A DNA stretch of 64,000 bases from assembly GCF_030389965.1 (NCBI RefSeq), contig NZ_CP128399.1:1-64000 (forward strand), read 5' to 3'. Source of the stretch: Candidatus Chlorohelix allophototropha (lineage in GTDB: Bacteria; Chloroflexota; Chloroflexia; Chloroheliales; Chloroheliaceae). Under the pieces are notes generated by a model. The model did not search any database, was not told the origin of the DNA, and saw only the letters and a program-made list of their open reading frames with translations. Both the position numbers and the translations under genes were made by a program. How positions within the stretch are numbered: position 1 is the first letter of the stretch; each line of letters opens with the position of its first letter. Shown here in pieces: positions 27,709 to 35,506 of the stretch.

Positions 27709-28079
27709 GTACAAAGTACAAATTTGTGCGCCGATTCGGGTTAAAATCAACCCGTAAGCGCCTGTCAAAGCTCGCTTGCTTATTTTGTCTGCTAACTCCT
27801 GCTCTGTTACAATTTGGAGCTATACAGCGTGCCCTATATATACCTCAGTTTTGATGAACCTACACGCACAAGAACAAGCCTATCGGAACAGAGCCTATAC
27901 TTTTGGGGTTGTTGAAAAAACGCGATAATAAAAGAGCCGGATAAGTTTTGTTTAAGCTTTGAGTTGTGATTTAGTACAATGCACCACCTTTCGAGTAGTA
28001 CTGAATATTAACTGCTTGTTCTGGCGATATAACTCTTGAAAGTTATGGTTTATCGCCTCAGAAAGTGAGGGGACAGGTT
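27709..28079. other. Gene-free stretch before the ClpC-like gene
   Basis: I see no gene in these 371 bases. A 6-bp hairpin, CGGGTT / AACCCG (27737-27742 and 27749-27754, loop AAAATC), is followed by no T-run. No convincing promoter could be fixed, although the ClpC-like gene needs one here, since the rpsA terminator lies upstream. Confidence 0.5.
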
Positions 28080-28994
28080 ATGGATAGTGGCAATAAAGTC
28101 AGTCCTAATACTCCCGAAAAAGCCCATGATGAAGCATCTACGCCCTCAAAAGCTACCGCGCGCGGTACGTTATATTCTGCCGGAATTAGCCTGATTGAGC
28201 GAGCGCAGGCAGGAGAACTCGATCCGTTGGTAGGGCGCGATGAAGAAGTTGCGCGTATTTTTCGGCTTTTATTACGTAGGCAGGACCCTCATGTATTGCT
28301 GGTTGGAGAAAGCGGTTCAGGAAAAACTGCGTTGGTAAACGGAGTGGCGTTGCGCCTTGCCGAAGACCCACCGCATGGTTTTGAAGGAGTAGATATAATC
28401 CAGGTAAATCACTTCTTCTTGGCACAATCGCTGCCGGGAGTGCGCTGGAAACAGGATATCGGCAACGGAAAAACAATCTTGTATGTACCGGATGGTTTGC
28501 TAAACTTCAGCCTATTCGCCGCGCTGTACGATCTGGTGAATCGGCATGGTGTACGTATTATTTCTGCTACAACCCCTGCTGGAATGTACAATATCAAAGA
28601 GCAAGACCCCGGATTGTTGCGCCGTTTCCAGGCTGTAGCGGTCAAAGCCCCGGATGAAGTTGAAACCATGAAGATTTTACGTTCCTCGCACAAGCTATAT
28701 GAACAGCATCATAAGGTATTTATAGACGATGGCGCGTTGGAAATGGCTTGGCTGCTTTCGGAGAAATATATAAACGATCGGGTACAACCGGGCGCGGCAA
28801 TGGATTTGCTAGACGAAGCTTGCGCAATGGTTGCGCTTAAGCGTGAGCCAGCTTTAAAGAAAAACAAAAAAGAAGATGTGCTAAAGGAAATCCGCGAGAG
28901 TCCGGTAACTGCCTATGAGGTGCTGGAAATAGTAGCAGACATAACCGGTAAAACTCCCGAAGAATTGGATAAAGAGCTAGACGAATCTGATTAA
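28080..28994 (+). CDS. Stand-alone degenerate ClpC D1-type AAA+ protein
   Basis: The 304-aa protein aligns by eye with the first ATPase domain of the neighbouring ClpC. Shared elements are GELDPLVGRDEEVARI (Clp[17 protein letters not shown]), Walker A GESGSGKT (about 75-82), a sensor-1-like ISATT and the arginine finger context LLRRF (about 180). The Walker B region is altered: ClpC has LFIDELH, while here it reads LYVPDGL, so the catalytic glutamate is missing. There is no Clp_N domain, no middle domain and no D2. It may bind ATP without hydrolysing it. The ATG at 28080 has GAGGGG upstream. It lies 343 bases before clpC on the same strand and may be a regulator of it. Confidence 0.82.
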   Translation: MDSGNKVSPNTPEKAHDEASTPSKATARGTLYSAGISLIERAQAGELDPLVGRDEEVARIFRLLLRRQDPHVLLVGESGSGKTALVNGVALRLAEDPPHGFEGVDIIQVNHFFLAQSLPGVRWKQDIGNGKTILYVPDGLLNFSLFAALYDLVNRHGVRIISATTPAGMYNIKEQDPGLLRRFQAVAVKAPDEVETMKILRSSHKLYEQHHKVFIDDGALEMAWLLSEKYINDRVQPGAAMDLLDEACAMVALKREPALKKNKKEDVLKEIRESPVTAYEVLEIVADITGKTPEELDKELDESD

Positions 28995-29337
28995 GTCTAA
29001 ATAAGGTAAAAATTGGGTCGATTCATACACTATACTAACGCAAAAGATACTACCCTTATTTGGCAAGTATGGTAAAATAGCCTTACTGCGGGGATTATAC
29101 TTACATGATAGTCCCCGTTATATATTTAATACTTAAAAAAGACTTTTATAAAAACTATACTACTTATTAAGCCCCTAAAAAAATAGACCCAATTACACCA
29201 GAATTGTAGATTTATTAGTGACAAAACTGAGCTGGCGTGGGGCAGCAGGGTCGTTTCTCTCCTAATATAAGTCCCTCGACTATAGAGAGATAGAGAGTTG
29301 CGGCAGAACTCAGTTTAGTTTAGTGGGAGAAACCATA
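28995..29337. other. Gene-free stretch between ClpC-like gene and clpC
   Basis: No gene is visible in these 343 AT-rich bases. One hairpin (CGGGGA / TCCCCG at 29089-29094 and 29112-29117) followed by an AT-rich run may end the upstream transcript. AATTGGGTC near 29011 and GACCCAATT near 29184 are inverted copies about 170 bases apart; their meaning is unclear. The clpC promoter should be here, but I cannot assign it. I see no CtsR or CIRCE-type repeat. Confidence 0.5.
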
Positions 29338-31863
29338 ATGTCTGATAGGTTTGAGAAATTCACAGAACGTGCGCGCAAGGTTTTGACGCTGGCGCAGGAG
29401 GAAGCGCAGCGTTTTAACCATAATTATATAGGTACTGAGCATCTACTTCTTGGTTTAGTGCGTGAAGGTGATGGAGTTGCTGCCCGCGTTCTCAACAATT
29501 TGGGCGTAGAACTCCATAAAGTGCGCAGCGCCGTTGAATTCATTATAGGGCGTGGCGATCGCGCTCCACAGGGTGAAATCGGCTTGACTCCTCGTGCCAA
29601 GAAGGTGATTGAACTTGCTGTAGATGAAGCCCGCCGCCTCAACCACCACTATATCGGAACCGAACATCTCTTGCTTGGTCTGGTACGTGAAGGCGAAGGT
29701 ATTGCTGCGGGTGTGCTGGAAAGCTTAGGCGTAAGTCTTGAGAAAGTGCGCCAGCAGGTTATTCAGGTGCTAAACCAGAGCACCTATAGTAACCAATCGG
29801 CTAAGCAGACCAGCCCAACACCTTTTGTTGATGCGATGGGCGTTGATCTGACAGAGCAAGCCCGCCAAGATAAACTTGACCCGGTTATCGGGCGCAAAAA
29901 AGAAATTGAGCGCGTCGTCCAGATTTTAAGTCGCCGCACCAAGAACAATCCCGCTTTGATCGGCGAACCCGGCGTTGGTAAAACTGCTATCGTCGAAGGT
30001 CTTGCACAGCGCATTGTCAGTGGTGATGTTCCTGAAAACTTGCTCAACAAGCGCTTGTTGGCGCTTGATATCGGCGCATTGGTTGCCGGTACTAAGTATC
30101 GCGGTGAGTTCGAAGAGCGCCTCAAAAAGGTAGTAGCTGAGGTCAAAAATACTGGCGCTATCCTCTTCATTGACGAGTTGCATACTCTGGTAGGTGCAGG
30201 CGCAGCCGAGGGCGCTGTGGATGCCGCTAACATCCTCAAGCCGGCTCTTAGCCGTGGCGAATTGCAGACTATCGGTGCAACCACTCTTGATGAGTACCGC
30301 AAGTATATTGAGCGTGATGCCGCTCTCGAACGCCGCTTCCAGCCCATTCAGGTGGAAGAACCTTCGGTAGAAGAAACCGTTCTCATTCTGCAAGGTATCA
30401 AATCCAAGTATGAAGAGCATCACCACCTGACGATTACCGATAATGCCATTAAAGCGGCGGCGGAATTGGCAGCGCGTTATATTACCGACCGCTATTTGCC
30501 TGACAAAGCGATTGACCTAATTGACGAGGCTGCCAGCCGTGTGCGTATGCACCGCAGTAGTAGCCCGCCCACTCTGAAAGAGGCGTTGCGTGGTCTTGAC
30601 AGTATCCGCAAGGAGAAAGATGCTGCTATAGCGGCTCAGCAGTTTGAACTTGCTGCCGACCTACGGGATCGTGAAGATCGTCTGCGCGAACGCATCACCG
30701 AGATGGAAAACAAATGGGAGAATGCGCAGGAGAACGAGCGACCTTACGTAACCGAAGAGGATATTGCTGAAATCGTTTCGATGCAAACCGGTATCCCCTT
30801 GATGCGTATTGCGGGTGAAGAAAGCGAACGCTTACTTCATATGGCGGAAGAGCTTCACAAACGCCTGATTGGTCAGGAAGAGGCAATTCAGCGCGTCAGT
30901 AAAGCGGTACAGCGCAGTCGCGCCGGAGTGAAAGACCCGAAACGCCCGATTGGTTCGTTTATGTTCCTCGGACCTACCGGGGTTGGTAAAACCGAATTGG
31001 CAAAAGCCTTAGCCGAATTCATGTTTGGCGATGAGAAAGCGCTCATCAAAATTGATATGAGCGAGTTCATGGAGCGTCATAACGTGAGTCGCTTAGTTGG
31101 AGCGCCCCCCGGCTATATCGGCTATGAGGAAGGCGGACAGCTAACCGAAGCGGTTCGGCGTAAAAGCTATTCCGTGATTTTGCTCGATGAAATTGAGAAG
31201 GCACACCCTGAAGCCTTCAATATGTTGCTCCAGATTTTGGATGATGGCTATTTGAGTGATGCCAAGGGTCGCCGGGTTGACTTCCGCAATACCATTATCA
31301 TTATGACCTCCAACGTAGGTGCGGAGTTCATCAATCGCAGCATGGTTACGCTCGGCTTCCGGCAAAAAGGCGACACGGATAAAACCGCCAAGACCGATTA
31401 CGATGAGATGAAATCGAAGGTGATGGAAGAACTCAAGCGCATGTTCCGCCCTGAGTTCCTGAACCGCGTCGATGACATCATCGTCTTCCACGCGCTACGC
31501 CAACCGGAAATTCGCCAGATTGTGAACCTGTTACTCAGGCGGGTACAAAACCAGCTTGTTGAGCAGCAAATTACGCTGGAAATAACCGAGGCAGCAATGG
31601 ACTGGATTGCCGAGAAGGGCTACGATAAAACCTATGGCGCTCGCCCGCTGCGCCGCGTTATCCAAAACGAGATTGAGGATAAACTGGCAGAGGGTTTGCT
31701 TTCCGGTAGTGTTCTGCCCAACCACAGGGTACTCGTTGAAACAAAAGATGCCGAACTGGTTATCACTAGCGTGCCACTGACCGATGCTGTGCCTGTTCTA
31801 CCTGATGGTAAACTGGCAATAATTGACGCTGAAATAGTGGTCGAAGAAAATAAAGAGAGTTAG
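29338..31863 (+). CDS. clpC: ATP-dependent chaperone/protease ATPase ClpC
   Basis: ClpC unfolds proteins for the ClpP protease and handles stress-damaged proteins. Two Clp_N repeats occupy about 1-145, each with an [11 protein letters not shown] motif. D1 has Walker A GEPGVGKT (about 207) and Walker B FIDELHT, and the middle domain contains the UVR motif region near 415-450. D2 has GPTGVGKT (about 544), [11 protein letters not shown], the arginine finger region and the [11 protein letters not shown]-terminal motif. The length of 841 aa is typical. The ATG at 29338 follows GGGAGAAACCATA; an upstream in-frame start at 29323 is not preferred. No clpP, ctsR or mcsB genes are adjacent; the close neighbour is a degenerate D1 paralogue. 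A strong terminator follows. Confidence 0.98.
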
Positions 31864-31921: not shown

Positions 31922-32731
31922 CTAATCTAATAACTTACGATTCCTGAATTCCTGTAAGAGGTCGGAAATGAGCTTGTCACCTGTTTCAGAGAACTCTGTT
32001 TGCAGTTCTCCTCTGAGCTTGTCAAGTTCGGTTTGAAAGTATTGACCGATTTCGGTCCAAGTAGTTGCACCAATAGTTAGATTATCGCATACCCATTTTG
32101 CTTCTTTTTTTAAGCGATAAAATTCATCCTTACTCATTCTTGGAGATCGTTGAATTCTAGCATTCTTGAGATATGTTAGTAGATTATCAATGCCATCATT
32201 GTTAATGAATATAATATTACGCTCTTTGGTAACCCACTGCGCTTTGATTGGTTTTTTTGTCAAAAGAAGTAGATAGGGTTTTCTCCGTTCTTCAGTTGCT
32301 AAGTTCCATCTCGCTAATAGCATCACGTACTTCCAAATTTGTGATAACTCAAGATTATCTCCTACCTTCATCTCAATAAAAATTCTAGTATTTTCGTCTT
32401 CCAATGTTGTATCTGGCTGTGCAAATGCTACCTTTCGATCAATATCTACAAGATAGTGTCTCAATGTTAGCGAAGTGCAGAAATCTACTTTCTGTGTATC
32501 CAAAAAACAGTTGAGAAATCCACTAATTATCCGTGTTGGAAATACACGTAAACTGATATTCAGAACTCCATTAAGTGGCACTTCATATCGACGAACTTTT
32601 TCTAATACTTGTTGGTAAGGTAATTTGTTTTCAGGATCTGTTTTCAGTCCAAAAAGGTTAGGACTATAATGAACACTTTCGACAAAATAGTAATAAAGTT
32701 GTTCTACCCATGAATTTCCCGCGTCTGCCAT
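31922..32731 (-). CDS. Putative PD-(D/E)XK nuclease-like protein
   Basis: I do not recognise a named family. The middle of this 269-aa protein has the spacing of a PD-(D/E)XK nuclease core: QPD with Asp107, then FIEMK with Glu120 and Lys122, flanked by predicted strands (IDRKVAFA, TRIFIEMKV, KPYLLLLTK). This resembles small DUF-type PD-(D/E)XK proteins of unknown substrate. The C-terminal part is helical and charged. The ATG at 32731 is preferred over 32746 because GGAG lies nine bases upstream. The gene and its flanks are clearly more AT-rich than the surroundings, which suggests recent transfer. No methylase or partner lies next to it. Confidence 0.7.
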   Translation of the reverse strand: MADAGNSWVEQLYYYFVESVHYSPNLFGLKTDPENKLPYQQVLEKVRRYEVPLNGVLNISLRVFPTRIISGFLNCFLDTQKVDFCTSLTLRHYLVDIDRKVAFAQPDTTLEDENTRIFIEMKVGDNLELSQIWKYVMLLARWNLATEERRKPYLLLLTKKPIKAQWVTKERNIIFINNDGIDNLLTYLKNARIQRSPRMSKDEFYRLKKEAKWVCDNLTIGATTWTEIGQYFQTELDKLRGELQTEFSETGDKLISDLLQEFRNRKLLD

Positions 32732-32867
32732 AGCCTTTTTCTCCATGTGTTCAAAGCGAGTAGAATAATTGTAGTATTTAACTTTATTATAATATTAAGT
32801 ATATTAATTGAATGTAGTGTTAATAATCCTAATAAATCGTTAATGAAATTGTTTTAACACAGGTTAT

Positions 32868-33839
32868 CTATGACCGACCGAACCAACCGCCCTTTTTCTT
32901 AAGGTCGCCGGTATCGCCGGGAGGTGGAGTCAATAGAGGGGGATGAGAGTCGAATACGGGCAGCATTGTTCGCGGCAGATTGTTTATCTGGCGATAACGG
33001 ATACACACGTCCTGTACGCTCATACGGTCAAGGGGGGCTTTGGAGAGCAATCGGATCATCATAGTGTGGATTTCAGGCCCATGCGCCACTAGCGGACCCA
33101 ATGAAGGCGGATTCTGGTAACTGTGCGCCAGAATCAATTGATCGTAAGTGCCGGTGAAAGGATAACGCCCGCTCAGGATAAAGTAAAGAATCACTCCAAA
33201 ATCGTACACATCGTTGGATTTGGAGGGTGGTTCACCCCTGAACCTTTCCGGTGCGATAAATTCAGGAATGCCAGCCGGTACTTTCCAGCCGATCATTTGC
33301 TCATGCTCTTTTTGGGAGAAAGGCGTAAGCAACTGCACCAACCCGAAGTCAGTCACCTCCACGCTGGCAGCGCCATTTCTTTCGCGCATGGTAATATTCC
33401 ACAAATTCAGATTACCATGAATGATATTTTGGCGGTTGGCATATTCGAGCGCGGCGGCAATTTGCTCAATTAAAACTGCTACCAGATCAGGTGAAAGTTG
33501 GGAGCGCACTCTCTGAACATAAGCATAAAGCGTTTCAGTGCCGGGCGGCTCATTTACCAGATAATGAAGGTTTGCGCCGCTTTGTACGTCTCGCATAACG
33601 CCCTGCGCTATCACTCGGTTTATATAAAGCTGATCCCAACTTGCCAGTTTAGGAGCAATTTCTGCCAATCGTTCCGCAAAACCCGGCAACATGCAGAGTC
33701 TTTTATCCAGTATGCGAATAGCTACCTGTTTGACTTCTCTGCGCCAACGGGTATCACGTCCGATATAAACTATACCAAACTGATCTCGCCCTAGCTCTTG
33801 TTCAATTAGAAAATGTTCTCCTACCAGCGTATTAATCAC
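32868..33839 (-). CDS. Hanks-type serine/threonine kinase homologue, predicted pseudokinase
   Basis: The 323-aa soluble protein keeps the kinase fold: a glycine-rich-type loop LGRDQFGIVY, DFG in VTDFGLV, APE in FIAPERF, and YDFGVILYFILSGRYPF. However, the ATP-binding VAIK lysine reads VAIR, and the catalytic loop reads HGNLNLWN where active kinases have HRDLKxxN. Both the catalytic aspartate and its lysine are therefore Asn. It probably cannot transfer phosphate in the usual way and may act as a scaffold or sensor. The start is GTG (33839) with a weak ribosome site. A short proline- and glycine-rich C-terminal tail has no membrane segment. The neighbours are a nuclease-like gene and a divergent PolX-like gene. 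Confidence 0.87.
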   Translation of the reverse strand: MINTLVGEHFLIEQELGRDQFGIVYIGRDTRWRREVKQVAIRILDKRLCMLPGFAERLAEIAPKLASWDQLYINRVIAQGVMRDVQSGANLHYLVNEPPGTETLYAYVQRVRSQLSPDLVAVLIEQIAAALEYANRQNIIHGNLNLWNITMRERNGAASVEVTDFGLVQLLTPFSQKEHEQMIGWKVPAGIPEFIAPERFRGEPPSKSNDVYDFGVILYFILSGRYPFTGTYDQLILAHSYQNPPSLGPLVAHGPEIHTMMIRLLSKAPLDRMSVQDVCIRYRQINNLPRTMLPVFDSHPPLLTPPPGDTGDLKKKGGWFGRS

Positions 33840-33976: not shown

Positions 33977-35449
33977 ATGAATAATGATAATAATGTCGGA
34001 AATATAAATAGAAACGAACCATTGCCCTTGTGCGTTGTGCCGGGTCTCAACCAGCGTATTGCTGCTATGCTTGAACAAAAAGCGGGAATACTTGGCGCGA
34101 CTGAATTGTTTGAAGCGTTGCAGGAGAGGCGTTTGGAGACGCTACCCGACCTCGGCATGAACGAATTAAAGCAGAATCTGGAACGCTGGCAAGCGAATAA
34201 TAAAATGTCGCTGGGCTTTGCTTTGGAACGAGCCAGAGAATTTGCCGGAAAGATAAGTGCGTTTGATTCCAACATTGTACGTATTGAAGTTACTGGAGCA
34301 TTACGTCGCGCCGAAGAACTGGTAGAACAGGTTAGCCTAATTGCGGTGAGCAACGATACATATGATACTCTTGAAGCTTTTCTAAAATTGCCCGAAATTG
34401 CCGAGGTACGAAAGCGTCGAGATTACAAAGCTGATGTCACCTTGCAAAACGGTCTCAAGTTGGAGTTTATCACTTGTTTTCCTGAGCAATTGGCTACAAC
34501 ATGGGCGCTTACTACCGGAACGACTGAACACCGTACCCAATTGCGCAACCTTGCCTACAAATACGGCTACGAACTCAGTCTTGGTGGCTTTCTGAAACGC
34601 GAGGACGTTTGGCCCGCCAAAGATGAAGAAGAGGTTTTTCGCTATCTAGGCTTGCCCTACATTCCACCTGAACTGCGTAACGGCAATGGCGAGATAGAAG
34701 CTATCCAGAAGGGTGAAATGTCGCTTGATTTGGTAACGTTATCCGGAATCAAGGGCGATTTGCATGTTCACTCAACTTGGGGCAATGGTAGCACCACTAT
34801 CGAGGAAATGGCGCGCGCTGCCATAAAAAGAGGCTACCACTACCTGTTGCTGGCTGACCACGCCGGACAAAATGCAAACCTTGCTAAATTGCTCCAACAA
34901 CGCGCCGAGATATACAGAGTGAACGATGTATTGGCACGCGAGGGTTATAACTTTAGCTTGCTATGGGGCGCTGAAGTGGAAATTTTGCCCGATGGTACGC
35001 TTTCGCTACCGGACGAGATACTTTCACAACTAGAGATTGTGGTTGCGACTATGCTTTCCGGCTTGCACCAAGAACGCAAGCAAATTACCGAACGCCTTAT
35101 CAAAGCTATGCAAAACCCTCATGTGGATATTGTGGCGCATCCCACCGGACGTATTTTGAACTTGTGTGAACCAGCCGACCTTTTTATGCTGAAAATCTTT
35201 GTAGCAGCGAGAGAGACAGGCACGGTTCTTGAAATCAACGGTAATCCCGACCGACTCGACCTGAAAGCAGAGTATATCCAGCAAGCTTTAGAAGAAAAGG
35301 CGAAATTGGTAATTTCAAGCGGGGCACATTCCACTCAAGCATTGGCACACCTTGAATACGGAGTTTTGACGGCGCGACGGGGTGCGGCGCGTGCTTCTGA
35401 AATACTCAATACGCTGGAACTGAATAAATTCAAAGCAGCGTTAAAATAA
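33977..35449 (+). CDS. PolX-like protein with PHP domain, both catalytic centres altered
   Basis: Bacterial PolX joins a family X DNA polymerase to a PHP exonuclease. This 490-aa protein has HhH-like N-terminal helices, a palm region (IVRIEVTGALRRAEELV) and a PHP domain starting DLHVHSTWGNG (about 261). The palm aspartates (VGDIDIL in PolX) are replaced by V-E-Q118-V-S120, and the third aspartate is Glu (LKLEFIT). In the PHP domain the usual SVHS histidine is Leu360 (TMLSG) and the DAH aspartate is Gly449 (SSGAHS), although HxH and AHPTGR remain. It may be structural or have changed chemistry. ATG 33977 follows TTAGGAGATT. Confidence 0.85.
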   Translation: MNNDNNVGNINRNEPLPLCVVPGLNQRIAAMLEQKAGILGATELFEALQERRLETLPDLGMNELKQNLERWQANNKMSLGFALERAREFAGKISAFDSNIVRIEVTGALRRAEELVEQVSLIAVSNDTYDTLEAFLKLPEIAEVRKRRDYKADVTLQNGLKLEFITCFPEQLATTWALTTGTTEHRTQLRNLAYKYGYELSLGGFLKREDVWPAKDEEEVFRYLGLPYIPPELRNGNGEIEAIQKGEMSLDLVTLSGIKGDLHVHSTWGNGSTTIEEMARAAIKRGYHYLLLADHAGQNANLAKLLQQRAEIYRVNDVLAREGYNFSLLWGAEVEILPDGTLSLPDEILSQLEIVVATMLSGLHQERKQITERLIKAMQNPHVDIVAHPTGRILNLCEPADLFMLKIFVAARETGTVLEINGNPDRLDLKAEYIQQALEEKAKLVISSGAHSTQALAHLEYGVLTARRGAARASEILNTLELNKFKAALK

Positions 35450-35451
35450 AA

Positions 35452-35471
35452 CAAGGGGCTTAAGCCCCTTG
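35452..35471 (+). terminator. Palindromic hairpin after the PolX-like gene
   Basis: CAAGGGGCTTAAGCCCCTTG is a perfect 20-base palindrome starting three bases after the stop. There is no T-run, so termination strength is uncertain; it may serve convergent pspA as well. Confidence 0.5.
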
Positions 35472-35506
35472 CCTGAAACGGATGTCTTGTGGTTTAGGAA
35501 GGGGTA

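What the first reader, a model, noticed from the sequence alone, without database searches (positions are those of the whole stretch)
33977..35449. PolX/PHP protein that appears to have lost both polymerase and PHP catalytic residues
The polymerase D-x-D is Q118-V-S120, the third Asp is Glu, and in the PHP domain a metal His is Leu360 and a metal Asp is Gly449. HxH and AHPTGR remain. The long frame is intact, so selection for a non-catalytic role (DNA binding, scaffold) is plausible. It is transcribed divergently from the pseudokinase.
Basis: partly seen in the sequence, partly recalled or inferred. Interest (0 to 1): 0.62.

Follow-up and report, generated by a model that had tools for sequence, protein, structure and literature searches.

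The report
Doubly inactivated PolX repair polymerase relic
A bacterial DNA-repair enzyme (PolX) appears to have lost first its DNA-building site, as its relatives also have, and then, in this lineage alone, its DNA-cutting site and most of its DNA-gripping parts, yet the gene was kept intact, which makes it a rare candidate for a repair enzyme reduced to a non-enzymatic role or caught on the way to loss.

Summary
ORF 33977-35449 (490 aa, good Shine-Dalgarno) is the only PolX in its genome, which appears to be the closed genome of 'Ca. Chlorohelix allophototropha'. The polymerase triad is Q118/S120/E163. The nine-ligand PHP site reads HHNHELHGH instead of HHDHEHHDH (D270N, H360L, D449G). The loop after metal ligand H295 has a 5-residue deletion, and R397C removes a DNA-path arginine. 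The N-terminal ~90 residues are absent and the remaining helix-hairpin-helix motifs are eroded. Loss of the polymerase triad is not new: same-family relatives (58-59% identical) share it and keep PHP and the N-terminus intact. They fit the published 'noncanonical PolX' class, exonucleases without polymerase activity. The PHP loss is specific to this lineage: it is the only such case among 145 aligned relatives. So the sequence shows two steps, an old polymerase loss followed by a recent PHP loss. The gene does not look like simple junk. Whole-branch omega is about 0.065, palm and thumb evolve at relatives' rates, and the fold models well. But fingers and PHP are accelerated, and another family member has no PolX. 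Best reading: a noncanonical PolX turned non-catalytic protein, with slow gene loss as the main rival.

The parts
33977..35449 (+). PolX-derived protein, 490 aa, only PolX of the genome
33965..33969 (+). Shine-Dalgarno AGGAG, 7 nt before ATG 33977; fixes the start downstream of the missing N-terminal domain
   Evidence: read from sequence
33977..34024 (+). residues 1-16, non-homologous, low-confidence leader in place of about 90 N-terminal residues (8-kDa domain with HhH1)
   Evidence: no remnant found in own genome
34025..34261 (+). fingers region, residues 17-95; HhH2 GxG changed (G25N) and HhH3 changed; about 33% identical to family relatives, accelerated about 5-fold
34262..34531 (+). palm, residues 96-185; triad D-x-D...D replaced by Q118 (34328), S120 (34334), E163 (34463); family-wide loss
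34532..34726 (+). thumb, residues 186-250; 68% identical to relatives, not accelerated
34742..35446 (+). PHP barrel, residues 256-490; nine ligands read HHNHELHGH
34784..34786 (+). D270N, PHP ligand position 3
34865..34873 (+). motif II loop: 5-residue deletion after residue 297 and G299N
35054..35056 (+). H360L, PHP ligand position 6 (B. subtilis H437)
35165..35167 (+). R397C, equivalent by position to B. subtilis DNA-path R474
35321..35323 (+). D449G, PHP ligand position 8 (B. subtilis D526)
35449..35474 (.). palindrome between the convergent polX and pspA, terminator-like on the minus strand
32868..33839 (-). divergent Ser/Thr kinase-like gene with R for the VAIK lysine, HGN for HRD, DFG kept; no ortholog in relatives

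Best explanation
This is a noncanonical PolX that has gone one step further, to a predicted pseudoenzyme. Shown by sequence: (1) the polymerase triad was lost before the family's genera split, while PHP and the N-terminus stayed intact, which is the published exonuclease-only type; (2) in this lineage the gene sits in a different neighbourhood from its relatives, lacks the 8-kDa domain, has eroded HhH motifs and lost three of nine PHP metal ligands plus the motif II loop. Inferred: neither polymerase nor 3'-5' exonuclease/AP-endonuclease activity remains. Inferred with less confidence: the palm-thumb-PHP body is kept for a non-catalytic task, most likely as a structural or binding partner. The PHP barrel still has six ligands and most of its DNA-path residues, so it could hold metal and a 3' end without cutting, or act through the conserved thumb-linker surface on a protein partner.
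For: Active-site states in the window, same-family relatives and the phylum. Single changes equivalent to each of the three PHP losses abolish or impair nuclease activity in related enzymes: S. aureus PolX H435A, chosen as one of nine exonuclease-critical residues; M. tuberculosis DnaE1 D23N and D226N; B. subtilis PolX H437 and D526. Maintenance: an intact 490-codon frame with ribosome site; whole-gene omega 0.065 on this branch, with omega 1 rejected (2dlnL 43) and 0.2 rejected (2dlnL 14); palm and thumb rate ratios to relatives of 0.7 and 1.06; and neutral decay to 5 lost invariants without a stop in only 1.2% of simulations. The model has pLDDT 85.5, pTM 0.81 and matches PolX 3auo and the YcdX barrel.
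Against: The branch dS is saturated, so omega averages the whole branch and cannot exclude recent decay. PHP evolves 2.4 times and fingers 5 times faster than in relatives. Another family genome, G403, has no PolX. No expression data and no partner are known. Only one sequence of the doubly altered type exists, so its own conservation cannot be tested.
Confidence: 0.55

Rival explanations
1. The gene is in slow decay toward loss: after polymerase loss and then loss of need for the exonuclease, it has no remaining function and has not yet picked up a stop or frameshift.
For: PHP and fingers are accelerated; the N-terminus is missing and gene context is not conserved; G403 in the same family and most of the no-match genomes listed in the same class (family f2) lack a match.
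Against: Palm and thumb are not accelerated and keep 9 of 9 invariant positions; whole-branch omega is low; five invariant losses with no stop is unlikely under neutrality (p 0.012); clean start signal.
Confidence: 0.3
2. The PHP domain keeps a reduced metal site (six of nine ligands, N270 as a possible weak ligand) and still catalyses something, for example a slower phosphatase or phosphodiesterase reaction.
For: H263, H265, H295, E333, H388, H451 and E419 are retained; T. thermophilus PolX is listed with Q at the first ligand; zinc is still present in purified M. tuberculosis DnaE1 D226N.
Against: Single changes equivalent to each of the three losses abolish or impair activity in related enzymes; the motif II loop and R397 are also lost. 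G. kaustophilus PolC with one D-to-N change binds metals but is inactive.
Confidence: 0.12
3. Alignment, assembly or sequencing artefact: the acids are elsewhere or the changes are errors.
For: None found.
Against: Context aligns without shift across the homologues; some changes differ from the relatives by two bases in the codon (D449G is GGG against GAT/GAC, G299N is AAT against GGC/GGT) and come with a 5-residue in-frame deletion; the genome's size and five contigs match a published closed genome.
Confidence: 0.02

Closest known systems
Noncanonical prokaryotic PolX (Prostova et al. 2022, PMC9226535)
   Same: Altered polymerase triad with conserved context, thumb and PHP fold; the family relatives L046-L048 fit this class by sequence.
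   Different: There the PHP consensus is kept in 98% of altered PolXs and the full 8-kDa domain in 95.3% of all; here three PHP ligands and the N-terminal ~90 residues are gone.
Canonical bacterial PolX (B. subtilis YshC, T. thermophilus 3au2)
   Same: Order of fingers, palm, thumb and PHP; 34% identity to T. thermophilus PolX in the structure alignment.
   Different: Polymerase triad, HhH motifs, 8-kDa domain and PHP site are all altered.
Variant PHP domain of E. coli Pol III alpha (PMC3666897)
   Same: A PHP barrel that kept its fold after losing metal ligands and acts structurally.
   Different: That domain sits in an active polymerase; here the attached polymerase is dead too.
PolX-like PHP proteins (PMC12926913; NCBIfam NF005928 also matches the PHP half here)
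   Same: PolX-derived proteins that dispense with polymerase function.
   Different: They deleted the polymerase and kept the PHP site; here the dead palm is kept and the PHP site is lost.

Membership tests
Bacterial PolX (PolX1) | Fingers-palm-thumb core fused to C-terminal PHP | tested here: met
Bacterial PolX (PolX1) | N-terminal 8-kDa domain | tested here: not met
   no remnant (which had no positive control)
Noncanonical PolX | Substitution in the catalytic triad of the palm | tested here: met
   QSE
Noncanonical PolX | Intact PHP nuclease site | tested here: not met
   HHNHELHGH; relatives HHDHEHHDH
Noncanonical PolX | 3'-5' exonuclease activity without polymerase activity | not testable with these tools
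   needs a bench assay
NHEJ-linked PolX | Ku in the genome | tested here: not met
   no Ku in G000 or the four other genomes of the order; B. subtilis control positive
PolX-like PHP protein | Polymerase domain absent | tested here: not met
   palm and thumb present
Pseudoenzyme under selection | Frame and fold maintained after catalytic loss | tested here: inconclusive
   searches support it for the branch as a whole; recent decay cannot be excluded

The most novel reading that the evidence does not exclude
A PolX that has lost both enzyme activities and its DNA-gripping N-terminus has been kept as a purely non-enzymatic protein, to my knowledge the first described fully inactive PolX, in a type I reaction-centre phototroph.
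Probability: 0.45. Interest if true: 0.6.

Novelty: new variant of a known kind. Interest (0 to 1): 0.4.

Why it matters
Published surveys conclude that PolX is kept for its PHP nuclease even where polymerase activity is lost. This case is an exception to that rule, with a clear before-state in close relatives, so the order of losses can be read and tested. If the protein is made and matters, PolX has a third, non-enzymatic use; if not, it is a snapshot of PolX being lost from a bacterial lineage.

Tried and rejected
A shifted motif register: rejected by alignment and model. A second intact polX: none. A remnant of the 8-kDa domain upstream or elsewhere: none found, though one search had no positive control. 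A conserved operon or partner: the kinase has no ortholog, pspA lies elsewhere in relatives, and the flanking genes of relatives' polX are not found beside it. An NHEJ link: no Ku. A test of whether lost invariant PHP positions concentrate in catalytic or DNA-path residues was not significant (4 of 12 against 3 of 23, p 0.20), so that argument is not used. The contrast between PHP and palm-thumb by parsimony counts is only suggestive (p 0.087), although PHP alone is clearly skewed (33 against 9). The codon test for palm plus thumb alone was not significant, probably because synonymous sites are saturated (LRT 2.2). A plasmid search gave only ordinary PolX below 60% identity and was not pursued.

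Full report
What is there. The ORF at 33977-35449 on the + strand starts at an ATG with AGGAG 7 nt upstream and codes for 490 aa. It is a PolX by whole-length similarity to the T. thermophilus and D. radiodurans enzymes, by the thumb and PHP profiles (the PHP Pfam match is just below cut-off) and by its predicted structure (pLDDT 85.5, pTM 0.81; best PDB matches 3auo/3au2 and 2w9m, with the PHP barrel matching YcdX at target TM 0.79). It is the only PolX of the genome. The genome has 6.086 Mb in five contigs and carries an FMO protein gene. These agree with the closed genome of 'Candidatus Chlorohelix allophototropha' L227-S17, whose replicons are 2.96, 2.45, 0.375, 0.241 and 0.055 Mb (PMC10972752). 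The host name is an inference.

The observation. More is lost than was reported. The PHP nine-ligand site, in the order H H D H E H H D H, reads H H N H E L H G H, so D270N is a third changed ligand. The loop after ligand H295 is five residues shorter and loses an invariant glycine. An arginine equivalent by position to B. subtilis R474 is C397. The first ~90 residues of PolX (the 8-kDa domain with HhH1) are missing, and the second and third helix-hairpin-helix motifs are eroded.

How it came about. Three genomes of the same family, in another genus, carry a PolX 58-59% identical to this one. All three have the polymerase triad replaced (M, T or V; S; E), the GS and TGS motifs changed in the same way as here, an intact PHP site and a full N-terminus. 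The polymerase was therefore most likely lost before these lineages split, and the branch leading to the family is long in palm and thumb (1.46 and 1.19) against PHP (0.42). In the window lineage palm and thumb then evolve no faster than in relatives (ratios 0.70 and 1.06), whereas PHP (2.4) and fingers (5.2) are accelerated; parsimony counts agree (PHP 33 against 9 derived changes, p 0.0003; fingers 23 against 5; palm plus thumb 12 against 9). This is a two-step loss. In a census of 145 aligned homologues, 121 of them with the palm columns, mostly Chloroflexota, no other sequence loses a PHP ligand beyond the first one or two histidines; four partial sequences could not be scored at every ligand. 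Polymerase-site alterations recur in other Chloroflexota lineages.

Is it dead. Published single substitutions speak to each PHP change. S. aureus PolX H435A, one of nine residues critical for exonuclease activity and by its numbering probably the motif III histidine, has no exonuclease (PMC7893174). M. tuberculosis DnaE1 D23N and D226N, the third and eighth ligands by motif order, have none (PMC5636811; ligand order in PMC3666897). In B. subtilis PolX, substitutions of the ligands including H437 and D526 impair all PHP activities (PMC6616362), and R474A lowers AP-endonuclease and exonuclease efficiency. The window protein combines these, so loss of nuclease activity is a strong inference but untested. 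Zinc was still found in DnaE1 D226N, so residual metal binding is possible.

Is it kept. A codon model on eight sequences gives omega 0.065 for the window branch; omega 1 is rejected (2dlnL 43) and so is 0.2 (2dlnL 14); a common omega with the relatives is not rejected. Synonymous change is saturated and the palm-thumb part alone does not reject omega 1, so this shows constraint averaged over the branch, not in the present. In simulated neutral decay to the observed five losses among 20 invariant PHP positions, 98.8% of runs acquire at least one nonsense mutation (substitutions only). So the invariant losses mostly happened while the frame was still selected. Against this, G403 in the same family (also FMO-positive) has no PolX at all, and many f2 genomes in the class have none. 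A slow path to loss remains the main rival.

What it might do. A classic gap-binding role is unlikely without the 8-kDa domain and the HhH motifs. The kept parts are the thumb and the thumb-PHP linker (58-85% identical to relatives in 20-residue bins), most of the PHP barrel and a helix near its C-terminus (88% in one bin), and the DNA-path residues R392, N421, R426, R467 and R468. The most economical reading is a non-catalytic body that binds a partner or a DNA 3' end; this step is inference. No partner is suggested by the neighbourhood: it is flanked by a divergent kinase-like gene with K-to-R and HRD-to-HGN changes and a convergent pspA, neither arrangement shared with relatives.

Against the known. 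The family belongs by sequence with the noncanonical PolXs of Prostova et al. (PMC9226535), which lack polymerase activity and keep an exonuclease; there 98% of altered PolXs have the full PHP consensus. A 2026 survey reports PHP residues conserved in 95% of PolX1 (PMC12926913). The parts of these papers that I read do not describe a PolX with both sites lost, but the supplementary tables could not be consulted, so rare precedents may exist. The window protein fails one defining feature of the noncanonical class (an intact PHP site), so it is filed as a derivative, not a member: a new variant of a known kind.

Noticed in passing
L087-L096, L098-L105, L109, L110 and places: Family f25 of Chloroflexota encodes only PHP-half PolX-like proteins (many about 335-345 aa), and f12 genomes carry the polymerase half and PHP half as separate genes at different places. 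PolX-like proteins have been described as almost exclusive to Actinobacteria. All fully scorable PHP sites in them are intact or differ only at the first histidine.
   Followed up: partly
L020, L027, L052, L055, L061, L062 and others: Polymerase-site alterations of PolX (DNT, NDR, DDQ, DNR, DNW and others) occur in several separate Chloroflexota lineages, with the PHP site kept. The phylum could serve to date repeated polymerase loss.
   Followed up: partly
32868-33839 (-): Kinase-like protein with R for the catalytic lysine, HGNLNLWN for HRDLKxxN and DFG kept, probably a pseudokinase; no ortholog in the four other genomes of its order (best 32% identity).
   Followed up: partly
31922-32746 (-): 274-aa protein with a weak PD-(D/E)XK nuclease match (Pfam PF14281, E 0.022, below cut-off) downstream of the kinase-like gene.
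   Followed up: no
28065-28994 (+): 309-aa ClpA/ClpB-like AAA protein with AAA lid directly upstream of a full-length clpC-like gene (29323-31863), possibly a truncated duplicate.
   Followed up: no
G000 and G403: FMO protein gene found in G000 and G403 but not in G400-G402 of the same family; the two FMO-positive genomes are also the ones with dead or absent PolX. Only two cases, so suggestive at most.
   Followed up: no
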